From positions 129-37,321 of the forward strand of contig MUNG01000143.1 of the NCBI GenBank assembly GCA_002154585.1: 37,193 nt of DNA, written 5' to 3'. A program made the translations under genes and the position numbers. Source of the DNA: Streptomyces pseudogriseolus (lineage in GTDB: Bacteria; Actinomycetota; Actinomycetes; Streptomycetales; Streptomycetaceae). Shown piece by piece: positions 22,471 through 37,140 of this stretch (position 1 is its first letter; every line of letters starts with the position of its first letter). Below the pieces are notes generated by a model, which searched no databases, had not been told where the DNA came from, and saw only the letters and a program-made list of their open reading frames with translations.

Positions 22471-25400
22471 GTGGGGTTGGGGATTGTCGGCGGACGTTTC
22501 CGCATCACGGGCGTCGTCGGACGCGGGAACATGGGCGAGGTGCACCGGGCGGAGGACCTCGAGGCCGCCGCGGACTCCCCGCACCGGCAGGTCGCCGTCA
22601 AGACCCTGCTGCGCAGCCGGACCGGGGGCGCGATCGACACCTCCGGGTCCGGCAAGGAGACCGCCCGGTTCCGCCGTGAGGTGCGCATCATGCGCATGCT
22701 CTCCCAGGGGCACCCGAACCTCACGCTGCTGATCGACGGCGGCGTGGACGACTCGGCGGACGGCGGCGGACTGCCGTACCTGGCGATGGAGCTGCTGGAC
22801 GGCAGTCCGCTCGCGGACCTCATCGACGAGGAGCCCCAGCTGCCGGTCTCCTGGGTCGCGGCCGTCGGCGCGCAGATCGCGTCCGGGCTGACGGCGGCGC
22901 ACACGGCCGGGGTCGTGCACCGCGACCTGAAGCCGGCCAACGTGATGCTGACCGGTGACGGCACGGTCAAGGTCCTCGACTTCGGCATGGGCTCGATCGT
23001 CGACGACCCCGACCAGACGCGGCTCACCAGCACGGGCGTGAGCCTCGGCACGGCCCGGTACATGGCGCCCGAGCAGTTCCGTGCCGAGCAGGTCTCCGCC
23101 CCGGCCGACCTGTACGCGCTCGGCTGCATCCTGTACGAACTGCTCATAGGGCGGCCGCCGTTCTCCGGCCGGACCCACTACGAGATCTCCGAGCAGCATC
23201 TGCACGAGCGGCCGCCCCAGTTGACGCTGGTGCGCCCGGACCTGCCCGCAGGGCTGGTGCGGCTGGTGGAGCGTCTGCTGGAGAAGGACGCCGAACTGCG
23301 CCCGGAGAACGCCGCCCTGGTCCGTGAGGCCCTGGTGCCGCTCGCCCTCGCGCCGGACCCCACGGCCGCCCTGCTCGCCCCGCACTGGCAGGAGATGGAC
23401 CCGGTGGCGCGGCTGCGCGCCCTGCTTCCCGAGCGGGCCCCCGCCGTGCCCGCGCCCGCGCCGCGCAGGCAGCCGCGGCTGCCGGAGGCGATGGACGTCT
23501 TCGGCATCCACGCCGACCTGATCGGCGAGTACGAGAGCTTCACCCGCAGCGGCACGGTGATCCGCGACGCCCGGATCGAGGGCTTCGTCGCGGACGACCT
23601 GAAGGCGAAGTCGCAGTGGCCCGACCCGTGGCTGTCGCTGAACCCGTTCTTCGCCGACGGCGGCCAGGTCACCGACCTGGTGCGGGACGGCGTCCTGCAC
23701 CCGAGGTGCGCGGAGATCTTCCAGGCGGGGAAGAAGGAGACGTCGTCGCGTCCGGACGGACGGCCGCTGACCTTCCACCTGCACCAGCGGCAGGCGATCG
23801 AGGCCGCGCAGGCGGGCGACTCGTACGTGCTGACCACCGGCACCGGTTCCGGCAAGTCGCTGTCGTACATCGTGCCGATCGTGGACCGGGTGCTGAAGGA
23901 GCGTGAGGCGGCGGGACCGGACGCCGAGCGCAGGGTGCGGGCGATCGTCGTCTACCCGATGAACGCGCTGGCCAACTCGCAGCTCGGGGAGCTGGAGAAG
24001 TATCTGCGCCACGGCTTCGGGAAGGGCCGCGAGCCGGTCACGTTCGCCCGGTACACCGGCCAGGAGTCCAGCGAGGAGCGCCGTGAGCTGCGCAAGAACC
24101 CGCCGGACATCCTGCTGACCAACTACGTGATGCTGGAGCTGATGCTGACCCGGCCGGACGACCGGTCCAGCCTGATCCGCATGGCGGAGGGACTGCAGTT
24201 CCTGGTCTTCGACGAGCTGCACACCTACCGGGGCCGGCAGGGCGCCGACGTGGCGTTCCTGATCCGCCGGGTGCGCGAGGCGTGCCGGGCGTCGGAGTCC
24301 CTCCAGTGCATCGGCACCTCGGCGACCATGTCCACCGAGGGCACCTGGGACGACCAGCGGCGTGAGGTGGCGAAGGTCGCCGGGCGGCTGTTCGGCACGA
24401 CGGTGCTGCCGGAGCGGGTCATCGGCGAGACCCTGGTCCGGGCCACGGAGGAGGCGCCGGAGTCGGTGCCCGCCGAGCGGCTGCGGGTGCCCTCGGCGCC
24501 CCGGTCGTACGAGGCGCTGACGAAGGACTCCCTGGCGCGCTGGGTGGAGTCGCGGTTCGGACTGGAGCGGGAGGAGGGCACGGGACGGCTGCGCCGCCGT
24601 GCCCCGGCGACCGTGGAGGAGGCGGCGGCGGAGCTGTCCGCCGCGTCGGGTGTCGCCGAGGAGACCGTGCGCGAGGCGATCCGGACGACGCTGGAGGCGG
24701 GCGCGCAGGCCAAGCACCCGGTGACGGAGCGGCCGTTGTTCGCGTTCCGGCTGCACCAGTTCCTGTCCAAGGGCGACACCGTCTACACCACGCTGGAGGA
24801 CCCGCTCACCCGGCCGCTGACCCGCACCTATCAGCTGGAGCAGCCGGACAGCGGCGGCAAGCCGCTGTTCCCGCTGGCGTTCTGCCGTGAGTGCGGGCAG
24901 GAGTATCTGACGGTGTGGCGCACCGAGGACGGCGGCGCCTTCCGGTACGAGCCGCGCCGGGACACCTCCGCCTCCGGGGGCCGCGAGGGCGAGGGCTACC
25001 TGTATCTGGGCATGCCGGGGCAGGACTACGAGTGGCCGGCCGACCCGCAGAAGGCGGTGGACGACCGTCGGCTGCCGGAGTCGTGGCTGGAGCCGGACGC
25101 GAACGGCGGGACGACCGTCAAGAAGTCGTACCGTCCGCGCGTGCCGAAGCGGGTCGTCGTGGACGCGCACGGCAACGAGTCGGGCGAGGGCCTGGTGGCG
25201 GCGTTCGTGCCGGCGCCGTTCCTGTTCTGCGTGCACTGCCAGGTCAGTTACGAGCAGACGCGCGGCCGGGACTTCGCGAAGCTGGCCACGCTGGACCAGG
25301 AGGGGCGGTCGTCGGCGACGTCGCTGATCTCCGCGTCGATCGTGAAGTCCCTGCGGGCGATGCCGGAGGACGGCCTGGGCAAGGAGGCGCGCAAGCTCCT

Positions 25401-28400
25401 CACGTTCGTCGACAACCGGCAGGACGCGTCCCTCCAGGCGGGGCACTTCAACGACTTCGCGCAGGTGACGCAGTTGCGCGGCGCGCTGTACCAGGCGGCG
25501 GTGCAGGCGGGTGAGGACGGGCTGCGCCACGACGACCTCGCGGAGGCCGTCACCGAGGTGATGGGTCTGACGCCCCGCGACTACGCGGCGGGCACGAACC
25601 TGCCGCCGTCGATGGAGAAGCGGGCGACGAAGGTGTTCCGGGAGGTCGTCGGGTACCGCCTGTACCGCGACCTGGAGCGCGGCTGGCGGATCACGATGCC
25701 GAACCTGGAGCAGACGGGTCTGCTGCGGATCGACTACGAGGACCTGGCCTGGGTCGCCGCCCAGCCGGACCGCTGGCAGTCCGCGCACGCGGTGCTGCGT
25801 GACGCCGACGCGCCCCTGCGCGAGGAGATCAGCCGGACGCTGCTCGACTACCTGCGGCGTGAACTCGCCATCGACGTGCAGTACTTCCGCGACGACTTCG
25901 ACACGTTGCAGCGGGCGAGCGAGGAGCGGCTGACGGGGCCGTGGGTGCTGAGCGACTCGGACCAGCCGACCGTGGGCACCGCCTACCCGTACGGTTCGCG
26001 GCCGGGCATGGAGCGTTCCGCGCTGTTCCTGTCGGCGCGCGGCAAGTTCGGCAAGTATCTGCGCCGGAACATGCCCGCCCTGCGGGAGCCGTCCGTCTCC
26101 CTGGACGACGTGCAGGGCGTCATCGAGGACCTGTTGAAGGTGTTGCGGGACGCGGACCTGGTGCGTGAGGTGGAGGCGGCCCCCGAGCGCTCGGGGCCGG
26201 CCTTCCGCCGCCGCGCGTCGGAGAAGCGGACCGGCTACCGGGTGTCGGCGGCGGCGCTGATCTGGCGGGCGGGTGACGGGGAGCGCGGCGCGGTCGACCC
26301 GCTGGCGCGCACCTACAGCAGCGGCGAGGGACCCCGCGTCAACCCGTTCTTCCGCGACCTGTACCGCACGGCGGCGTCCGAGCTGGCGGGGCTGTTCGCG
26401 CGGGAGCACACGGCGCAGGTCACGCCGGAGGACCGGCTGGAGCGTGAGCGGCAGTTCCGTGACGCCGAACTGCCCCTGCTGTACTGCTCGCCGACGATGG
26501 AGCTGGGCGTGGACATCTCCTCGCTCAACGCGGTGATGATGCGCAACGTGCCGCCGACCCCGGCGAACTACGCGCAGCGTTCGGGCCGGGCGGGCCGCTC
26601 CGGTCAGCCCGCGCTGGTGACCACGTACTGCGCGACGGGCAACAGCCACGACCAGTACTACTTCCGGCGTTCCCAGGACATGGTGTCGGGGCAGGTGGCC
26701 CCGCCGCGTCTGGACCTCGCCAACGAGGACCTGGTCCGTTCGCACATCCAGGGCATCTGGCTGGCGGAGACCGAGATGAAGCTCGGCGCCGCGATCCCGG
26801 ACGTCATCGACGTCGCCTATGACCCGGACGGCGACGACCGCCCCGATCCGCAGATGCCGCTGCCGCTGCTCGACCGGATCCGGGACCTGTCCCTGGACGA
26901 GGGCGCGCGCCGGCGTGCGGTCGCCGCCGCCCGGACGGTCCTCGCCCCGCTGATCGCGGACTTCGAGGCGACGACGTGGTGGTACGACGAGTGGATCGAG
27001 GACCGGATCGAGCGGGCCCCGGCGAAGTTCGACGCGGCCTTCGACCGGTGGCGGGACCTGTTCCGGGCGGCGGTCATCGACCAGTACGAGCAGAACAAGC
27101 GGGTCGTGGACCACACCCTGTCCCCCGGTGAGCAGAGCCGGGCGCGCACGCGCCGCCGGGAGGCGGAGACGCAGACGAACCTGCTGCTGAACCGCTCCAC
27201 CGACAGCAAGTCGGTGATGAGCGACTTCAACCCGTACCGGTATCTGGCGTCCGAGGGGTTCCTGCCCGGCTACAGTTTCCCGCGCCTGCCGCTGGCCGCG
27301 TACATCCCGCGCTCCGGGAACCGGCGCAACGCCGACGGCGACTACCTCCAGCGGCCCCGGTTCCTCGCGATCCGCGAGTTCGGCCCCGGCGCGCTCATCT
27401 ACCACGAGGGCGCCCGCTACCAGGTGACGCGGGTGCAGCTGCCGCCGGACGCCTCGGGCGACCTGGCGACGGCGGAGGCCCGCCGCTGCGACGGCTGCGG
27501 CTACCACCACGACGTCAAGGCGGGTTCGGACCTGTGCGCGATGTGCGGCGAGCCGCTGCGCGGCAAGCGCACGGGCCTGCTCCAGCTGCACACCGTGTAC
27601 ACCACCCCGCGCGAGCGGATCTCCTCGGACGAGGAGGAGCGGCGCAGGGCCGGGTTCCGTCTGGAGACGTCGTACGCGTTCCAGGATCACGGCGCCCGCA
27701 AGGGCCGTCTCACCTCGCACGTCGGCGACGCGGAGGGCGTGCCCGTCCTGGACCTGGACTACGGCGACTCGGCGACCGTCCGCATCACCAACCTGGGCCG
27801 GGTCCGCGACAAGGAGGGCGAGCCGGACGGTTACTGGCTGGACCTGGGCGACGGCCGCTGGCTGAACGACCGGGCCGCCGCGGACGCCATCGAGGGCACC
27901 GGCATGCCGGTGGTCGACGAGGACGGCAACGAGAAGCGCCGCAAGAAGCGGGTCCTGCCGTACGTGGAGGACCGCCGGAACATCCTGGTGGTGACGCTGG
28001 ACGAGCCGCAGCCGGAGCCGGTGGCGCTGTCGTTCCTGTACGCGCTGGAGCGGGGCATCGAGGCGGCGTTCGAGCTGGAGGACTCCGAGCTGACGGCGGA
28101 GCTGCTGCCCCCGGACGACGGGCCGCGCCGCCGCATGCTGTTCACGGAGGCCGCGGAGGGCGGCGCGGGCGTGCTGCGCCGCATCCAGCACGAGAAGGAC
28201 GCGCTGGCGAAGGCCGCCCGGACGGCGCTGGAGATCTGCCACTTCGACCCCGACACGGGCGAGGACCTGGGCGGTCCCTCGGAGCACGAGAAGTGCGCCC
28301 GCGGCTGCTACACCTGCCTGCTGACGTACGCCAACCAGGGCCACCACCGGCAGCTCAGCCGGCACACCGCCCGCCCGCTGCTGCTGCGCCTGGCCGGCGC

Positions 28401-28863
28401 CCGCACCGAGCGGGAGGACCGGGGCGAGTCGCGCAGCGAGGCGTTCCGCAGGCTCGTCCCGGCGGCTGCCGCCGCGGGCGGCGACCGCACGGCGGCCGGG
28501 GACGCTCCCGCCGCCGCCGAGGTCTCCCCCGTGTCGGTGCCGACCCCGCTGGAGTCGGATCTGGCGGCGCTCGTCGCGCAGGGCGATCTGGTGGGCTGGC
28601 TGAAGGCGAAGGGGTACCGGCTGCCGGACGAGGTGGACGTGTTCGTCGACGCGGCGGCGGCCCGGCCCGACCTGGTGTTCCGCCTGGACGGCGTCCACCT
28701 CGCCGTGTTCGTCGACACCCCGGGCCGCCCGGCCGACTCCACCCGTGACGTGGACGCCGGCTACCGCCTGGAGGAGGCCGGCTGGGACGTCGTGCGCTTC
28801 CCGGCGGACGCGGACTGGGACGCCGTCGTCGAGCATCACGCCGCCTACTTCCATCTGCGCTGA
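22471..28863 (+). CDS. Ser/Thr kinase - DEAD/H helicase - DUF1998 fusion (putative defence protein)
   Basis: 2130 residues from GTG 22471, preceded by GGAGGGG. Residues about 8-290 are a Ser/Thr kinase that looks active: glycine loop GRGNMG, Lys44, Glu70, HRDLKPAN (Asp152), DFG (Asp170) and APE (199-201). A superfamily 2 helicase follows: TGTGSGKS (about 456), FDELH (about 581), TSATMS (about 616), then an insert of about 700 residues with CRECGQEY and CVHC pairs and [21 protein letters not shown], then [10 protein letters not shown] and [11 protein letters not shown] (about 1369). [21 protein letters not shown] (about 1673) and [18 protein letters not shown] (about 1942) mark a zinc-binding DUF1998 region. 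The last 100 residues ([18 protein letters not shown]...[11 protein letters not shown]) resemble a Vsr/DUF559 nuclease fold. The helicase resembles DISARM DrmA and the DUF1998 part DrmB; DruE is another comparison. It is the first gene of a probable defence operon. Confidence 0.9.
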   Translation: [2130 protein letters not shown]

Positions 28864-28921
28864 CCCGCCCCGCACGCATCGACTTCCCGACGTATCGACC
28901 CTTGAGGAACTGAGACATCCC

Positions 28922-31875
28922 ATGAGCCCCACGTACACAGCCGGCTCGCTGGTCGCCGCCCGTGGCCGGGAATGGGTGGTGCTGCCCGAGAGCGCCCCCG
29001 ACATGCTGGTGCTGCGCCCGCTGGGCGGGAGCGAGGACGACATCGCGGCCGTGTTCCCCTCGTTCGAGGAGGTGCGGCCCGCCGAGTTCGCCGCGCCGAG
29101 CCCGGACGACCTGGGCGACCAGCGCGCGGCCGGTCTGCTGCGCACGGCGCTGCGCATCGGGTTCCGGTCGGGCGCGGGCCCGTTCCGCTCGCTGGCGTCG
29201 ATCGCCGTGGAGCCGCGCGCCTACCAGCTGGTGCCGCTGCTGATGGCGCTGCGGCAGCGCACGGTGCGCCTGCTGATCTCGGACGACGTCGGTATCGGCA
29301 AGACGGTCGAGGCGGGCCTGATCGCCAAGGAGCTGCTGGCGCAGGGCGAGGCGACCCGGCTGGCGGTGCTGTGCTCCCCCGCGCTGGCCGAGCAGTGGCA
29401 GGCGGAACTGCGGGAGAAGTTCGGCATCGACGCCGAACTGGTGCTGGCGTCCACGGTGTCGCGCCTGGAGCGGAACCTGGAGCTGGGGCAGTCGCTGTTC
29501 GACAAGCACCCGTTCACGATCATCTCGACGGACTTCATCAAGTCGACCCGGCACCGCGAGGACTTCGTCAAGCACTGCCCCGACCTGGTGATCGTCGACG
29601 AGGCGCACACCTGTGTCGCCGCCGACGACGCCGCGCAGGGCGGCGCGTCCTCCGCGACGAACCAGCTCCGCTACGAGCTGCTGCGGAAGGTGTCCGCCGA
29701 CGCCGACCGCCATCTGCTGCTGCTGACGGCGACCCCGCACTCCGGCAAGGAGTCCGCGTTCCGCAACCTGCTCGGCCTGGTGCGGCCCGAGCTGGCGACG
29801 CTGGACCTGGAGACGCCGGCGGGCCGCGCGAAGCTCGCCGAGCACTTCGTGGCCCGCAAGCGCGCCGACGTCCGCACCTACCTCACCAAGGAGGACGGTC
29901 TCACCGACGACTCCCTGATCGAGCGGACCGCGTTCCCCTCCGACCGCTGGACGAAGGACGAGCCGTACAAGCTGACGCCCGCCTACCGTGCGCTCCTTGA
30001 CGACGCGATCGCCTACGCCGCGGACCGCGTCCACGCGGCCGGTGAGCAGGGCAAGCGGGAGGCCCGGATCGCCTGGTGGTCGGTGATCGCCCTGCTGCGC
30101 TCCATGGTGTCGTCCCCGGCCGCCGCCGCGCAGACCCTGAAGACGCGCTCCGAGTCCGCCACCGCCCGCACCGCGCACGAGGCGGACGTGCTGGGCGCCC
30201 CGGTGGCCGCCGACTCCGCGGAGAACGACCGCCTGGAGGGCATGGACGTCACGCCCGGCGCCGCCGAGTCGGAGGACGCGGGCGCCCGCCTGCTGGAACT
30301 GGCCGGACGCGCCGAGGAGTTGATGGGCCCGGCGGGCGACGCGAAGCTGAAGGCGCTGACCAAGCACCTGAAGGACCTGATCAGCGAGGGCTACAACCCC
30401 ATCGTCTTCTGCCGCTACATCCCCACCGCCGACTATCTCGCCGAGCAGCTGGACGGCAAGCTCGGCAAGAAGACGAAGATCGCCTCCGTGACCGGCACGC
30501 TCTCCCCGCAGCAGCGCCTGGAGCGCATCGAGCAGCTCGCCGCCGAGGCCGCCGAGGCGGGCGACGACCCGGCCGTGCGCCGCGTGCTGATCGCCACCGA
30601 CTGCCTCTCCGAGGGCGTCAACCTCCAGCACCACTTCGACGCCGTCGTCCACTACGACCTGGCCTGGAACCCCACCCGCCACGACCAGCGCGAGGGCCGC
30701 GTCGACCGCTACGGCCAGAAACGCGACCAGGTCCGCGTCATCACCATGTACGGCGAGGACAACGGGATCGACGGCAAGGTCCTGGACGTGCTGTTCAAGA
30801 AGCACCGCCAGATCAAGAAGGACCTCGGCATCTCCGTCTCCGTCCCCGACGAGACCGCCTCCGGCGTCACCGACGCCGTGGTGGAGTGGCTGCTGCTGCA
30901 CGGCCGGCAGGGCAGCCAGGAGAGCCTGTTCGAGATGGACGGCCACCAGGAGTCCTTCGACCGTATCGAGCGGGAGTGGAGCTCGGCCGCCGAGCGGGAG
31001 AAAACCTCCCGTTCCAAGTACGCGCAGCGTGCCATCCACCCGGAGGAGGTGGCCCGCGAGGTCGCCGCCGTACGGGCCGCGCTCGGCGGCGCGGAGGAGG
31101 TGCGCGAGTTCACGCTGGAGGCGCTGCGGGACCTGGACGCGCTGATCCGCGACCCGCGGGACGGCAGCGGTGACTTCACCGCCCAGGTCGGCGGCACCCC
31201 GGCCGGGCTGCGGGACGCGCTCGCGGCCACGCTGGGCAACCGGCTGGTCGAGGAGGACCGCGAGATTCCCTTCCGCACGACCCCGGCGATCGGGCGCGGC
31301 GAGGCCGCCCTCGTCCGCACCGACCCGGCGATCGGGGCCGTCGCCTCGTACGTCCTGGACTCGGCGCTCGACGCCAAGGCGCTGGGTCCGCGCCCGGCCC
31401 GCCGCTGCGGTGTGGTGACGACGGACGCGGTGAGCGTGCGCACCACGCTGCTGCTGGTCCGCTACCGCTTCCACCTCACCCTGCCGTCCCGCACGGGCGA
31501 GCGGCAGCTCGTCGCCGAGGACGCACGGCTCCTCGCCTACGAGGGGCTGCCGCAGCGCGCCCGCTGGCTGGACGACGACGCGGCCACCGCGCTCCTGGGT
31601 GCCCGCGCCACCGCCAACACCCATGAGCTGGCCGCCCGCAACGCCATCACCCGCGCGCTGGACGGCCTGCCCGGCATCGCCGACCACCTCACCGAGTACG
31701 GCACCCGCCTGGCCGCCGAACTCGACGCCTCGCACCGCCGCGTGCGCAAGGCCAACGAGGAGATCGTCCGCGGCCTGAAGGTCGTCCGCAGGAGCCCGCC
31801 GACGTCCTCGGCGTGTACGTCTACCTGCCGCCCGCCGCCCCCGCCGCCTCTACCGTGTCCGGAGCCGAAGCCTGA
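28922..31875 (+). CDS. SNF2-type helicase, DrmD-like, with one-base frameshift near the 3' end
   Basis: Expected to have about 983 residues. The N-terminal ATPase lobe has SDDVGIGKTVEAGL (Walker A, about 121), VIVDEAHTCV (DEAH at about 226) and LLTATPHSGKE (about 269). The C-terminal lobe has NPIVFCRYIPTADYLAEQL, LIATDCLSEGVNLQ and QREGRVDRYGQKRDQVRV (about 591). The pattern matches the DrmD helicase of class 1 DISARM and related HepA/RapA-like ATPases that move along DNA. Near 31786 the frame shifts: after RGLKVV the expected PQEPADVLGVYVYLPPAAP lies one frame away, and a single missing C explains it. The proper stop (31873-31875) then shares its A with the methyltransferase ATG. Without correction the frame would run to 32917 across the next gene, which is implausible. 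The gap to the kinase-helicase gene is 58 bases. Confidence 0.85.
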
Positions 31876-34800
31876 TGTCCGCCGCCGCCACCCGCACCGC
31901 CCTGGCCTTCACCGCCGTCACCACGGTCGGCGGACTCCTCCCCGCCGACATGCTGCTCCGCATCGCCGAGGCGCGGAACCTGCCCGGCACCAAGCCCGCC
32001 GACTACGGCCTCCCCGCGTCCGTCCCGGTCCGGGACGAGGCCGAGCGCGCCTGGGAGTACCTCAAGCCGCTGTGGCGCGAGCTGCGGGCCGCGCTGCCCT
32101 CGGATCCGGTCACGGGTGCCCCGTCCGCCGACCCGACGGGGCGGGCGGGCTCGGATTGGCTCGCCCAGTTGTTCCGCAAGCTGGACTTCGGGGCGCTGAC
32201 GGAGGTCGGGACGGCGGGCATCCCTGCCGACTCGGACCCGGAGAAGCGGTTCCCGGTGTCGCACCGGCACGGGCCAGCGCTGGTGCATCTGGTGCCGTGG
32301 AACCAGGAGTTGGACAAGCGTCCGGCGGCCGGTCAGGTCCCGGCGCAGTCGATGCTCCAGGACTGCCTGAACCGGGCCGAGGCCCACCTGTGGGCGGTCC
32401 TGACGAACGGGCGCCGGCTGCGGCTGCTGCGGGACTCGTCTTCCTTTGCCACGGCGGCGTACGTCGAGTTCGACCTCGAGGCGATCTTCGACGGGGAGCT
32501 GTTCAGCGAGTTCGTGCTGCTGTACTGCGTGCTGCATGCGTCGCGGTTCGCCGTGCCGGAGGGGGCGGCGCCGGCCGGGTGCTGGCTGGAGAAGTGGCGT
32601 ACGGAGGCCGTCACATCGGGGGCGCGTGCGCTGGACCAGTTGCGGCTGGGCGTGCAGAACGCGCTGACCGTGCTCGGCACCGGATTCCTGCGGCACCCGG
32701 AGAACGTGCGGCTGCGGGAGGATGTGGACGCAAAGGCGCTGCGGGACGCGCTGCTGCGGCTGGTGTACCGGCTGTTGTTCGTGTTCGTGGCCGAGGACCG
32801 GGATGCGTTGCTCGACCCGGCGGCCGGCGAGCGGCAGCGGGAGGCCTACGAGCGGTACTTCTCGTCGGCGCGGCTGCGGGAGCGGGCGCGGCGGCGGCAG
32901 GGGACGGCCCACGGTGACCAGTACGAGGCGCTGCGGATCGTCCTCGACGCGCTGGGCACGGAGGGGGGCCGTCCGGAGCTGGGGCTGCCTGGACTCGGTG
33001 GGTTGTTCTCGCACACGGAGGCGGACGCGCCGCTGGACGGGCTGAAGCTGTCCAACGAGTCGTTGCTGGCGGCGGTGCGGCACCTGGCTCAGGTGCGGGA
33101 CCCGGGGGCGCGGCGGTGGCGTTCGGTGGACTACCGGCATCTGGACGCGGAGGAGCTGGGCTCGGTCTACGAGTCGCTGCTGGAGCTGGAGCCCAAGCAC
33201 TCGGCTACGGACCGGTCCTTCGAGTTGATCGAGGTCGCGGGCAACAGCCGGAAGACGACCGGTAGTTACTACACCCCGTCGTCGTTGATCGAGTGCTTGC
33301 TCGACACGACGCTCGATCCGGTCATAGACGACGCGGTCAAGCGGGGTGAGGAGCGGGCGACGAAGGCCGGCCGTCCTGACCCGGCCGACGACATCGTGGA
33401 GGAACTGCTCGGGCTTACGGTCTGCGACCCGGCTTGTGGGTCGGGGCATTTCCTTGTTGCTTCGGCTCGGCGTATCGCCAAGCGGGTGGCGTCCGTGCGG
33501 GAGCGGAACCCGGAGCCGACGGTCGATGCGGTGCGGCATGCCTTGCACGAGGTCGTCGCGCGGTGCATCTATGGCGTGGACCTCAACCCGATGGCGGTGG
33601 AGCTGGCGAAGGTTTCGCTGTGGCTGGAGGCGCTGGAGCCGGGTAAGCCGCTCGGGTTCCTTGACGCCCACGTCAAGCACGGCAACGGGCTGATCGGTGC
33701 GACGCCGAAGCTGCTGGCGGAGGGGGTTCCGGACGACGCGTTCAAGCCGATCGAGGGGGATGACAAGAAGTACGCAGCCGGGCTCGTCAAGCGGAACAGG
33801 GCCCAGCGGGGCGGGCAGGACGAGCTTCTGTTCGACACGGAGACTCTGCCTGGCAACGACCAGTACGCTGCCGAGTTGGCCCGGATCACCACGGCACCGG
33901 CAGACTCTCTGGAGCAGGTGCGGGCGCAGGAGTCGGCGTATCGGGCCTACGTCGAGTCTGCGGCCTACGTGCAGGATCTGCATGCCGCTGACGCGTGGTG
34001 CGCCGCATTTGTCTGGCCCAAGTGGGAGGGAGCGCCGGAGGCTCCGACGGACCAGGTGTTCCGGGCGTTGCGGGGGCGCGACCAGTCGGCGGTTCCGGAT
34101 GCCACGCATGCCGAGATCATGAGCTTGCGCGACCAGTACCACTTCTTCCACTGGCATCTGGAGTTCCCGGAGGTGTTCGCGGTCCCTGAGTCGGGGGCGG
34201 GCGTCCAGCCGGGCACGGGGTGGGCCGGCGGGTTCGATGCGGTAGTGGGGAATCCGCCATGGGACAGTGTGAACTTGCCGGAAATCGAGTTTTTCGCAGT
34301 ACGAGCGCCTGATATTGCGGCCACCAACAACACCGCCGCCCGAAAGAAGAAGATCGAGGGACTCAAGGACAACCCCGACACCGTCGACCTCTACGCCGAC
34401 CACGAGGCCGCGAAGCGCAAGGTGCTCGGCGAAAGCCACTTTCTCCGTAATTCTGGCCGCTACCTCCTGACGGGACAGGGCAACCTTAACCTATACGCCC
34501 TATTCACTGAGACTGACCGAATTCTGACAGCTGACCGAGGCCGCACAGGCGTCGTCGCCCCAACCGGCATCGCCACTGATGCTCGTACGCAACACTTCTT
34601 CAAGGACCTCGTTTCAGCAAGATCTTTGGCTGCGCTATATGACTTCGAGAACCGTAGCGGGCTATTCCCCGCAGTGGACTCACGCATGAAATTCTGCGTC
34701 CTCTCCTTCACTGGCCGTAGCCTTCGAGTGCCCGCAGCCCGTTTCGCCTTCTTCGTCCATGACCCAGCCGAACTGGACTCTCCGAAGAAGATCTTTTCTC

Positions 34801-35984
34801 TCACTCCTGAGGAAATTCAGCTCCTCAACCCCAATACCCGCACTTGTCCCATCTTCCGCTCCCGTCGAGACGCTGAAATAACCCTCGGAATCTATCGCCG
34901 CGTACCAGTTCTCCTCAATGAGGCCGATGAGAAAAACGGTAATCCGTGGGGCGTGTCCTTCAACCAAGGACTCTTCAACATGTCGCACGACTCACATCTC
35001 TTTCGCCCCTCCACGGCCAACGGTGAGACGCTCGAGTCGATGCTCACCGACGGGTGGCAACTCGACGGCAACCTACTCGTCCGAGGTGGTGAGCGACTGC
35101 TGCCGCTATACGAGGCGAAAATGTTCCATCACTACAACCACCGCTGGGCAACCTATACCCGCAAGGGAGAAACCCGGGATCTCACTCTAGATGAAAGGAA
35201 TGACCCAGGTAGCGTTGCACAACCTCGCTACTGGGTCGCCGATCAAGAGATTCAGACCGGAACGGTGGACAAGCATGGCGCTGAAGTCAAATGCGACGGC
35301 GTGAGTCAACGGCTGGCGAATCGACGCTGGACTCATGACTGGCTACTCAGTTGGCGTGACATCTGTCGAGCTACAGATGAACGCACCATGATCAACGCTG
35401 TAATCCCTCGCGTCGCCGCGCCCAACGCAACGCTACTGATGTTCCCGACACAGGGCCCCATCGCCGGTCTCGTAGCATGCCTTTCGTCCTTCGTGCTGGA
35501 CTTCGCCGTACGGCAGAAGGTGGGTGGGACACATCTCTCGTTCTTCACGGCTCAGCAACTCCCGGTCCTCACCCCCCAGCAACTCTCGCCTCACATGGGT
35601 GCCGTCTCCCCCCGCGTGCTCGAACTTGCCTACACGACCTACGATATGACCCCCTTTGCTGTCTACCTCGGCGACGACAACCCTCCTTTCCGTTGGGACG
35701 AGGATCGCCGGGCTCATATTCGCAGTGAGCTGGACGCTCTCTTCTTCCATCTTTACGGCATCAACCGCGACGACGTGGCGTATATCCTCGACACTTTCCC
35801 GATCGTCAAGCGTAAAGATGAGGAGAAGTACGGCGAGTACCGCACTAAAAGCCTGGTCCTCGCCGAGTACGACCGTATGGCCGCCGCTGGCCTGACCTTG
35901 GAGAACCCGCTTACCGAGGGCGAGTCCGGCACCTACCGCTCCACACTCACTCCGCCCCCCGGTCAGGGTGCTCGCCACGACTGA
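31875..35984 (+). CDS. N6-adenine DNA methyltransferase, DrmMI/PglX-like
   Basis: 1369 residues. An N-terminal helical region (1-450) precedes the gamma-class methyltransferase core: [12 protein letters not shown] (motif X, about 462), [14 protein letters not shown] (SAM motif I, about 518), [22 protein letters not shown] (motif II, about 569) and [13 protein letters not shown] (catalytic NPPW, 793-796). The C-terminal 550 residues hold [10 protein letters not shown] and a probable target-recognition region. It should methylate adenine at a specific site, marking host DNA or, as in Pgl, modifying phage DNA. It resembles DISARM DrmMI and the PglX/BrxX family. The ATG overlaps the restored helicase stop (TGATG), so the two are coupled. 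Base composition drops sharply after about 34255, with AT-containing third positions and an ATA codon near 34878, suggesting a different origin for the specificity half. Confidence 0.9.
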   Translation: [1369 protein letters not shown]

Positions 35985-35985
35985 C

Positions 35986-36020
35986 CCACCCCTGGGGTGG
36001 CCCCACCCGGTGGCCACCCC
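35986..36020. terminator. Cluster of overlapping GC-rich inverted repeats
   Basis: CCACCCC-T-GGGGTGG (35986-36000) is a 7-bp inverted repeat starting two bases after the methyltransferase stop. CCACC-C-GGTGG (36003-36013) and the perfect palindrome GGTGGCCACC (36009-36018) follow, and CCACCCC recurs at 36014-36020. The arms can pair in alternative ways. This may be a terminator or processing site between the large genes and the small downstream genes; there is no U-tract. Confidence 0.4.
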
Positions 36021-36057
36021 GCGGTCTGCCCCACCGCTCACCCAAGGAACAACGCAC

Positions 36058-36567
36058 GTGGTACGCGTAAACCAGACCAGCAACCCCCGGTCGGTCGTCG
36101 TCCTGAGCTCAGGTACGGATTGGCGTACGCGAGCCGCTGGGCAGAAGCGCAGCAGCGGGGCCGAGTCCGAGATACCCCGGAAGCAGCCCGCGAAAATCAG
36201 AGCCTTGCAGCAGGCCATCAGCCTGGCGAACATGGCCATCAACAAAAAGAACTGGAGTGCGGCGCGCTACGCGCTCAGCCGGGCCCGTGTCCTCGCCGAC
36301 GCTCTACCCGCCAACGTGGCGGTTCCGGAACGCGAAAGACTCGCCGCGGCCCGCAAGAGGTTCGCCGCGCGCAACACGCCGGCCGCGAAGAAGGTCAGGC
36401 AGGCGAAGACGACAGCGGCCAAGCGAGCGGGCGGCAAGAAGCCCGCCCCGAACAAGTCCACGGCGAAGAGCACCGCCAAGCAGCCGAAACCCGCGCCCGT
36501 GCGCGACCTCGGTGACCGTTTCATCAACCGCGCTGCTCTCGGCTACGGCCAGAACAGAACGACGTAA
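36058..36567 (+). CDS. Basic Lys/Ala-rich protein with histone H1-like tail
   Basis: 169 residues from GTG 36058, with AAGGA about ten bases upstream; a longer frame from 35968 would begin within the upstream gene. Residues about 42-105 look helical (KIRALQQAISLANMAINKKNWSAARYALSRARVLADAL), reminiscent of a helical-repeat hairpin. Residues about 107-155 are a strongly basic, low-complexity tail of Lys, Ala, Pro and Thr (PAAKKVRQAKTTAAKRAGGKK, then similar) like histone H1 or HupS-type tails, suggesting DNA binding. It ends in a less basic RDLGDRFINRAALGYGQ. I do not recognise a named family. It lies 73 bases after the methyltransferase gene on the same strand. Confidence 0.6.
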   Translation: MVRVNQTSNPRSVVVLSSGTDWRTRAAGQKRSSGAESEIPRKQPAKIRALQQAISLANMAINKKNWSAARYALSRARVLADALPANVAVPERERLAAARKRFAARNTPAAKKVRQAKTTAAKRAGGKKPAPNKSTAKSTAKQPKPAPVRDLGDRFINRAALGYGQNRTT

Positions 36568-36630
36568 GTTCCCCGAACATGATGTCCGGACCTCCGCACC
36601 ACCCTGTCTCACCACTCCGGAGGAGCACCC

Positions 36631-37140
36631 ATGGAACCACGCGGTTACCGCATGGTGGTCTCGACCGAATTCGACTACGTCAAAGCATGCGGCATAGCCG
36701 AGCGACAGCTACTCGAATGGCTCCGCAGCAAGAACTACGACCCGTCCGGTCTGGACGAGGGGCGGACTGAGATCGCCCCGCACGCCACCCTCGACCGTGA
36801 CTCGGAAAGCGGGCGAAAGGGGGCTTACAGCCGGTGGCGCATGCGCGAGACACACTCCGCCACCTCGGGCACCTGGCAGTCAACGCTCATCGTGCGCTCC
36901 GGCCTCGCCGAGGACCAGGGTCGTACTTGGGTACAGGTCGACGTCGAGCACCAGCCGCCCGAGGGGCAGTTCCCCACGCGCGCCAACACGCCCAACATCG
37001 TCCGCTCCCTTCTGGACGCTTTGGAGGCGCGTGACGCCCAGGCCGACGTCACTACCGCGCCGGTTTTCGTCGAGGCCGATGAAGTCGACGACACCATCGA
37101 GGAGTTGTGCGACAGTGAGCCTTTTCCACCATCACTCTGA
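36631..37140 (+). CDS. Unknown protein, possibly truncated at the right edge
   Basis: 169 residues from ATG 36631, with GGAGGAG five bases upstream. The sequence is a mixed alpha/beta domain (YRMVVSTEFDYVKACGIAERQLLEWLRSKNYD... and SGTWQSTLIVRSG...RTWVQVDVEHQPPEGQFPTRANTPNIVRSLLDALEARDA) followed by an acidic linker (FVEADEVDDTIEELCDSE). I do not recognise the family. It ends abruptly in PFPPSL, and the bases from about 37115 look unlike the coding sequence before them, so it may be the N-terminal part of a longer protein interrupted by a mobile element. It is the fifth gene of the defence-like operon in the window. Confidence 0.6.
   Translation: MEPRGYRMVVSTEFDYVKACGIAERQLLEWLRSKNYDPSGLDEGRTEIAPHATLDRDSESGRKGAYSRWRMRETHSATSGTWQSTLIVRSGLAEDQGRTWVQVDVEHQPPEGQFPTRANTPNIVRSLLDALEARDAQADVTTAPVFVEADEVDDTIEELCDSEPFPPSL

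What the first reader, a model, noticed from the sequence alone, without database searches (positions are those of the whole stretch)
22471..37140. Kinase-helicase / SNF2 helicase / adenine methyltransferase operon: a DISARM-Pgl hybrid candidate defence system
Seen: three large co-directional genes encode a kinase-SF2 helicase-DUF1998 fusion, a SNF2-type helicase and a DrmMI/PglX-like methyltransferase, followed by two small genes. Known: class 1 DISARM combines DrmD (SNF2), DrmMI (methylase), DrmA (helicase), DrmB (DUF1998) and DrmC (PLD); Pgl combines the PglW kinase with the PglX methylase. Inferred: this locus merges both logics in fewer, larger proteins, with phosphorylation built into the helicase. 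No DrmC-like gene is in the window.
Basis: partly seen in the sequence, partly recalled or inferred. Interest (0 to 1): 0.88.

Follow-up and report, generated by a model that had tools for sequence, protein, structure and literature searches.

The report
Kinase-fused ARMADA phage-defence operon
This Streptomyces-type operon looks like a recently named bacterial anti-virus system (ARMADA Type I) in which a protein kinase, an on/off signalling enzyme, has been fused to the DNA-unwinding motor, which suggests that in these actinobacteria the defence is switched by phosphorylation.

Summary
Three large genes (22471-35984) encode a kinase + YprA-type helicase (MZB/DUF1998) + Vsr-like nuclease fold, a SNF2/RapA-type helicase and a PglX/Eco57I-type adenine methyltransferase. 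The interpretation changes: not DISARM-Pgl, but ARMADA Type I (Bell et al., 2025 preprint) by gene set, order, helicase tree and C-terminal domain. The kinase is PknB-like, not PglW-like. New is the kinase: the word does not occur in that preprint's main text, yet it precedes the helicase in 77 of 80 loci, in a clade best explained by one gain and one loss. In the sister clade 6 of 6 loci carry a separate, divergent kinase gene directly upstream, on at least four different upstream flanks. Catalytic residues are intact in 76 of 76. The methyltransferase specificity half is swapped independently of the helicases. The Vsr catalytic-type histidine is missing in 41 of 80 kinase-fused proteins, this one included. 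Best reading: methylation-marked, helicase-driven restriction gated by phosphorylation. Anti-phage function and the kinase's role are inferred. The two small genes are not core; the second is truncated near the contig end.

The parts
22471..28863 (+). kinase-YprA helicase-MZB/DUF1998-Vsr-like fusion (2130 aa), ARMADA Type I YprA gene with N-terminal kinase
22507..23322 (+). PknB-like Ser/Thr kinase domain (res 13-284); K44, D152, D170 present
23782..24333 (+). DEAD/RecA1 (res 438-621), Walker A K462, DELH 581-584
26398..26604 (+). Helicase_C/RecA2 (res 1310-1378)
28039..28320 (+). MZB (former DUF1998) Zn domain (res 1857-1950); Cys 1942/1946/1949 in 84 of 84 aligned
28573..28854 (+). Vsr-like PD-(D/E)XK fold (res ~2035-2128); D2067 and D2082 kept, catalytic-type His replaced by R2086
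28922..31878 (+). SNF2/RapA/BrxHII-like helicase (ArmA-type); end inferred from relatives, the frame itself runs on to 32917
31875..35984 (+). PglX/Eco57I-type N6-adenine methyltransferase (1369 aa)
33675..35654 (+). hypervariable, low-GC half of the methyltransferase (res 601-1260), probable target-recognition region
35968..36567 (+). small Lys/Ala-rich protein (start uncertain), accessory, in 17 of 80 relatives
36631..37140 (+). truncated copy of an accessory protein that is 548 aa long in three relatives (present in 7 of 80)

Best explanation
An ARMADA Type I anti-phage system in which the YprA helicase carries an N-terminal PknB-like Ser/Thr kinase with intact catalytic residues. The adenine methyltransferase marks host DNA at sites set by its exchangeable C-terminal half. 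The SNF2 motor and the YprA helicase act on unmarked invading DNA, which is unwound, or degraded by the Vsr-like domain (where active) or by host nucleases. The tethered kinase phosphorylates itself and its partners to switch the complex between resting and restricting states, as PglW is proposed to do in Pgl. Shown here: the gene set, conservation, domains, intact motifs, a fusion explained by one gain, and a stand-alone kinase gene beside the sister systems. Inferred: phage defence, methylation-based self-marking, and kinase gating.
For: Gene trio in one order and strand in 77 of 77 loci with all three genes. Kinase-less homologues with the same three genes in Nocardioides, Rhodococcus, Deinococcus, Chlorohelix and Roseomonas match the ARMADA Type I description. 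Tree. Kinase K44/D152/D170 in 76 of 76. Kinase state needs two changes on helicase-only trees, one gain (support 100) and one loss. Six of 6 sister-clade loci have an adjacent divergent kinase gene, whose far-side DNA differs between four groups. SNF2 and helicase identities to the window co-vary (r 0.91) while the methyltransferase does not (r -0.15), and its variable half has GC 0.61 vs 0.71. Precedent: PglW K677A loses autophosphorylation and phage resistance in Streptomyces (PMC4365076, passages); an ARMADA Type II cluster protects E. coli against 13 of 80 phages (PMC12458937).
Against: No experiment on a Type I system was met in the papers seen. One natural copy (L067) has lost the kinase while its three frames stay open, so the kinase is dispensable at least there. 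Common origin of fused and stand-alone kinases is not shown: the free kinase tree puts four ordinary kinases with the stand-alone group (AU p 0.16 for one clade). The Thermus TF19 relative (L096) does not show the trio in the 17.8 kb held. The window's SNF2 C-end is out of register, so this copy may be damaged. The left flank is ordinary metabolism, not a defence island (10 of 19 predicted genes scanned).
Confidence: 0.68

Rival explanations
1. The kinase is the effector: on infection it phosphorylates host proteins and stops growth (abortive infection), the helicase-methyltransferase part serving as the sensor; this would explain why the fused nuclease decays in Streptomyces.
For: The catalytic-type His of the Vsr-like domain is absent in 41 of 80 kinase-fused proteins, against 4 of 34 kinase-less ones, one of which (L067) is a recent kinase loss. 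Suicidal roles are proposed for the kinases of PglW/DndF (PMC12839542, passages).
Against: The loss is concentrated in Streptomycetaceae (21 of 59 keep His; other kinase-fused 17 of 18 keep it), so it is confounded with lineage; the six systems with a stand-alone kinase keep His. ARMADA Type II acts without killing cells (PMC12458937).
Confidence: 0.15
2. An ordinary ARMADA Type I system; the kinase is a lineage-specific add-on that lets host kinases tune expression or assembly and has little to do with sensing phage.
For: Kinase-less relatives are common (in a phylum-wide sample 18 of 296 genomes matched, 2 of them with fusion-length frames) and one copy lost the kinase (L067).
Against: Full retention of catalytic residues in 76 of 76 over kinase identities of 56-95% to the window; association in two arrangements (fused, divergent neighbour).
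Confidence: 0.2
3. One reading: a DISARM-Pgl hybrid.
For: DrmD- and DrmMI-type profile hits (277 and 229 bits).
Against: DrmA match is weak (47.5 bits) against DruE 345; NCBIfam DrmD and PglW cut-offs missed; tree.
Confidence: 0.04
4. Part of a Dpd (7-deazaguanine) system, as the PADLOC label of the SNF2 gene (DpdE, 1617 bits) would have it.
Against: The same model scores 769 and 1074 bits on the SNF2 genes of the kinase-less Deinococcus and Nocardioides loci and 1522-1657 on kinase-fused relatives, while NCBIfam's DpdE scores 172 (cut-off 500); no modification gene of Dpd among the 15 window proteins scanned.
Confidence: 0.02

Closest known systems
ARMADA Type I (Bell et al. 2025, PMC12458937; outline, Results parts 1-2 of 3, Conclusions and figure legends read; main text searched for 'kinase')
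   Same: YprA-like helicase first, then BrxHII/RapA-like helicase, then PglX-like methyltransferase; fused DUF1998 and C-terminal Vsr-type domain; [quoted passage not shown]
   Different: N-terminal kinase fused to the helicase ('kinase' has 0 occurrences in that main text; supplements not read); Vsr motif degenerate in this copy
ARMADA Type II (ArmABCD, E. coli)
   Same: same three protein families; tested anti-phage activity
   Different: order SNF2-methyltransferase-YprA followed by ArmD (UvrD-type helicase), seen here in L122 with small genes between, and its last two genes in L124; not in this window
DISARM class 1
   Same: SNF2 helicase (DrmD) and methyltransferase (DrmMI) families
   Different: DrmA and DrmB are separate genes, with a DrmC PLD nuclease; none found here
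Pgl / BREX type 2
   Same: a Hanks kinase and a PglX-like methyltransferase; PglW kinase activity is needed for phage resistance (PMC4365076, passages)
   Different: PglW has NERD, pseudokinase, BrxA-like and iSTAND parts (PMC12839542, passages); here a PknB-like kinase on a helicase; no PglZ/PglY among the proteins scanned
Druantia (DruE)
   Same: nearest named helicase profile (345 bits)
   Different: no DruH/DruF partner seen among the proteins scanned; a DruE in the same genome scores 2180 bits

Membership tests
ARMADA Type I | YprA-like helicase with fused DUF1998/MZB | tested here: met
   Pfam MZB above cut-off; YprA/MrfA 6znp among PDB hits (89 bits)
ARMADA Type I | helicase falls with Type I rather than Type II, Druantia or DISARM | tested here: met
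   Tree of 20 rows: window in a 12-row group (support 88) with loci of Type I order such as L092, L093, L094, L098, L123; four other rows labelled Type I stay unresolved at the root; long branches. Labels by gene order where seen (L101, L104, L110 by similarity alone); no named reference protein was on hand
ARMADA Type I | BrxHII/RapA-like (SNF2) helicase gene | tested here: met
   SNF2/Helicase_C in Pfam; PADLOC BrxHI/HII 187 bits; NCBIfam RapA 114 bits (under that equivalog's cut-off of 576)
ARMADA Type I | PglX-like DNA methyltransferase gene | tested here: met
   Eco57I/N6_Mtase over Pfam cut-offs; PglX models 50-54 bits, under NCBIfam's cut-off of 400; NPPW in 83 of 86 frames
ARMADA Type I | order YprA, SNF2, methyltransferase | tested here: met
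   77 of 77 loci with all three
ARMADA Type I | C-terminal Vsr-type nuclease fold | tested here: met
ARMADA Type I | that nuclease predicted active | tested here: not met
   window has R at the His position; the authors describe activity as the prediction for the class, not as a condition of it
ARMADA Type I | BrxA-like insert after RecA1 | not tested
   no model of that part was made
ARMADA Type I | anti-phage activity | not testable with these tools
   -
DISARM class 1 | DrmA and DrmB as separate genes plus DrmC | tested here: not met
   one fused YprA protein, DrmA 47.5 bits, no DrmC gene among the proteins scanned
Pgl / BREX type 2 | PglW kinase | tested here: not met
   46 bits vs cut-off 990
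Pgl / BREX type 2 | PglZ and PglY | tested here: not met
   none among the 5 operon proteins or the 10 of 19 predicted left-flank proteins scanned; contig ends 53 bases after the last ORF, so the right side is unseen in this genome
Dpd | 7-deazaguanine modification genes with DpdE | tested here: not met
   no such gene among 15 window proteins scanned; NCBIfam DpdE below cut-off

The most novel reading that the evidence does not exclude
A phosphorylation-switched class of ARMADA: a soluble PknB-like kinase was recruited next to the ARMADA operon as a divergent gene, in a sister lineage is fused onto the helicase, and has become the decisive sensor/effector as the fused Vsr nuclease decays, so that a helicase-methyltransferase restriction system has turned into a kinase-signalling immune system.
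Probability: 0.2. Interest if true: 0.8.

Novelty: new variant of a known kind. Interest (0 to 1): 0.6.

Why it matters
ARMADA was named only in 2025, and the preprint's parts that I read say nothing about how it is controlled. A lineage in which a kinase is either the divergent neighbour of, or fused to, the central helicase gives a handle on control of helicase-based restriction, parallel to the role of PglW in Pgl. It is also common: 49 of 295 sampled genomes of the window's genus hold a helicase of this branch, 40 of the 52 matches with frames long enough for the fusion. The easily compared fused, neighbour, kinase-less and nuclease-decayed forms make the kinase's role directly testable in laboratory Streptomyces.

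Tried and rejected
DISARM-Pgl hybrid: rejected on profiles and tree. Dpd: rejected; the PADLOC 'DpdE' model PDLC02853 behaves as an ARMADA SNF2 model. 'Nuclease dead in Streptomyces because the kinase replaced it': not established; 13 changes of the His on the tree, but the kinase state changes only twice and lineage is confounded. Shared tail motif (W..xDP) as proof that fused and stand-alone kinases are one family: weak, because a DP motif also follows the four nearest background kinases. Common origin of the two kinase groups: not rejected (AU p 0.16), not shown (two fused rows, L074 and L132, were dropped by my pattern; background = 29 kinases, 28 of them from the best loci of the 62 matches in two genomes). 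P0004/P0005 as core parts: rejected (17 and 7 of 80). In the first tree ten reverse-strand loci were misread by my script and left out; one search repeats it with them, with the same result. Paper searches by COG numbers and with DrmD found nothing; two others listed papers of which no title or abstract start names this fusion (one followed up in passages, PMC7159879). The claim that the kinase fusion is not in print rests only (open-licence papers; listings, passages and one main text; no supplements). Foldseek with the C-terminal model gave no hit below E 0.001; the Vsr assignment rests on the VIA second look, on the PD...FVD..H signature and on the preprint.

Full report
WHAT IS THERE. From 22471 five + strand ORFs follow each other. 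Protein 1 (2130 aa) has a Ser/Thr kinase domain, a DEAD/YprA helicase core and an MZB (former DUF1998) domain; protein 2 is a SNF2/RapA-type helicase; protein 3 an Eco57I/PglX-type adenine methyltransferase. Ten of 19 predicted left-flank genes were scanned: ordinary (glycosyl hydrolase 15, FAD oxidase, cytochrome oxidase, symporter, RibD-like), no PADLOC hit at 1e-10.

CONSERVATION. A scan of genome contigs with the helicase part alone gave 197 relatives, of which the best 80 were kept. All 80 hold the helicase, 79 the SNF2 gene and 77 the methyltransferase; the three loci lacking one or both are cut by contig ends; all 77 with the trio keep order and strand. The kinase precedes the helicase on the same strand within 400 nt in 77 of 80, in one frame of at least 2000 aa in 76 of these (the other, L052, has a broken helicase frame). 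Of the remaining three, L051 and L061 begin 111 and 130 nt before the helicase match, and L067 (second copy in Streptomyces sp. AC1-42W) has no kinase hit in 25 kb. In 84 aligned proteins (five dropped: L030, L051, L052, L061, L084) the kinase Lys44, Asp152 and Asp170 are present in 76 of the 76 that have the kinase, and Walker A/B residues and MZB cysteines in 84 of 84. The model of residues 2-699 (mean pLDDT 75) shows a confident kinase fold and a disordered linker (about 320-389, pLDDT mostly under 50) before the helicase. Nearest solved kinases are PknB (165 bits).

THE KINASE. On helicase-only trees (kinase and nuclease columns left out) the kinase state changes twice, read as one gain (support 100) and one loss, L067 (with 114 rows). 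In the window's genus 49 of 295 genomes have a match at E 1e-100; 40 of 52 matches have frames of 2001 aa or more (lengths, not individually checked). The sister clade of the fused form has a kinase-less helicase, yet in 6 of 6 members found (L129, L130, L137-L140) a stand-alone kinase gene stands directly upstream in divergent orientation; none of ten more distant kinase-less loci (L127, L128, L141-L144, L092-L094, L098) has a kinase hit in the DNA held, 4-10 kb upstream. On the far side of the kinase (2.8-3.8 kb compared, DNA level) only L129, L137 and L138 match each other; L130, L139 and L140 match none, so kinase and trio have stayed together on at least four backgrounds. G298 has 38 kinase matches in 8.5 Mb, so adjacency by chance is unlikely, though the six are related and count as one event. 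In a kinase tree of 51 rows fused (16, support 99) and stand-alone (6, support 100) kinases are each one group, in one larger group (95) with four background kinases; a single fused + stand-alone clade is neither shown nor rejected (AU p 0.162).

SPECIFICITY AND NUCLEASE. In 32 relatives of the window's own subclade, helicase and SNF2 identities to the window correlate (r 0.91), helicase and methyltransferase do not (r -0.15; best aligned piece of each): L012 is 94/96/62% and L013 91/93/87%. Residues 601-1260 of the methyltransferase average 44-67% pairwise identity per 60-residue window while residues 1-600 stay at 75-89% (34 sequences), and the variable half has GC 0.610 against 0.713 for the first half in the window (0.646 against 0.718 on average in the 32). 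This fits exchange of target recognition, as in restriction-modification systems. The Vsr-like D2067 is kept in 99 of 99 and D2082 in 97 of 99; a histidine four residues after D2082 is kept in 20 of 21 kinase-less sequences outside Streptomycetaceae, 17 of 18 kinase-fused ones outside that family, and 21 of 59 kinase-fused ones inside it; the window has arginine. On 114 sequences: kinase-fused 39 with, 41 without; kinase-less 30 with, 4 without. That this histidine is catalytic is inferred from the Vsr-family motif as I recall it.

HOW IT LIKELY WORKS. In ARMADA Type II deletion of any of four genes abolishes protection, most Walker/NPPW mutants do so too and two motif mutants only in part, and infected cells survive (PMC12458937). 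By analogy the trio probably restricts DNA lacking its own adenine mark. PglW of Streptomyces shows that a Hanks kinase can be essential for a PglX-type defence (PMC4365076, passages). I therefore read the fused kinase as a switch of the complex (inferred). The loss in L067 and the decay of the nuclease in many Streptomyces leave open a kinase-effector alternative.

NOVELTY. The core is a known, very recently named system; the kinase-fused and kinase-neighbour forms were not met in the papers searched (PMC12458937: outline, Results parts 1-2 of 3, Conclusions and legends read, main text searched for 'kinase', 0 hits; PMC12839542, PMC11090510, PMC12904381 and PMC7159879: passages only; supplements not available). 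Hence new variant of a known kind.

Noticed in passing
L119:6442-14959 (G000:C346, ~26.4-35.0 kb): The same genome also carries Druantia genes (DruE 2180 bits, DruF 331 bits, PADLOC).
   Followed up: partly
window:37113-37193 (contig end; L117): The second small gene loses homology about 25 bases before its stop and the contig ends 53 bases after that stop; possibly an insertion-sequence edge that broke the assembly. A 548-aa relative (L058) has weak HEC-07/NsnC profile hits.
   Followed up: partly
L038, L042, L043, L045, L047, L050 and others, within 10 kb upstream of the helicase: In 11-13 loci a mostly divergent cluster of DrmA-like, DrmB-like and a 922-aa sigma-70-domain (MzaA-like) protein stands next to the kinase-fused ARMADA (one member of each family scanned).
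   Followed up: partly
L014, L018, L027, L045, L056, L057, L065, L070, L074, L076, L092 downstream of the methyltransferase: A ~590-aa AAA_5 ATPase follows the trio in 11 loci (one member scanned); in L092 an AAA ATPase gene is followed by a McrC family gene.
   Followed up: no
PADLOC model PDLC02853: The model labelled DpdE matches ARMADA SNF2 genes at 769-1657 bits (Deinococcus, Nocardioides, Streptomyces, Pseudonocardia); the label looks misleading.
   Followed up: partly
L035+L067; L130+L131 (G316); L134+L135 (G323); G486 C24 and C39 (L142); L127+L128 (G331): Five genomes hold two ARMADA Type I-like copies each, three of them with different kinase states (by frame length for G486).
   Followed up: partly
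window:31798-31878: The SNF2 frame is out of register with relatives near its end; intact copies exist in other genomes.
   Followed up: partly
L077: One kinase-fused copy sits on a 9.9-kb contig labelled Candidatus Melainabacteria but nests among Pseudonocardiaceae copies in the trees; probably a mis-binned contig.
   Followed up: no
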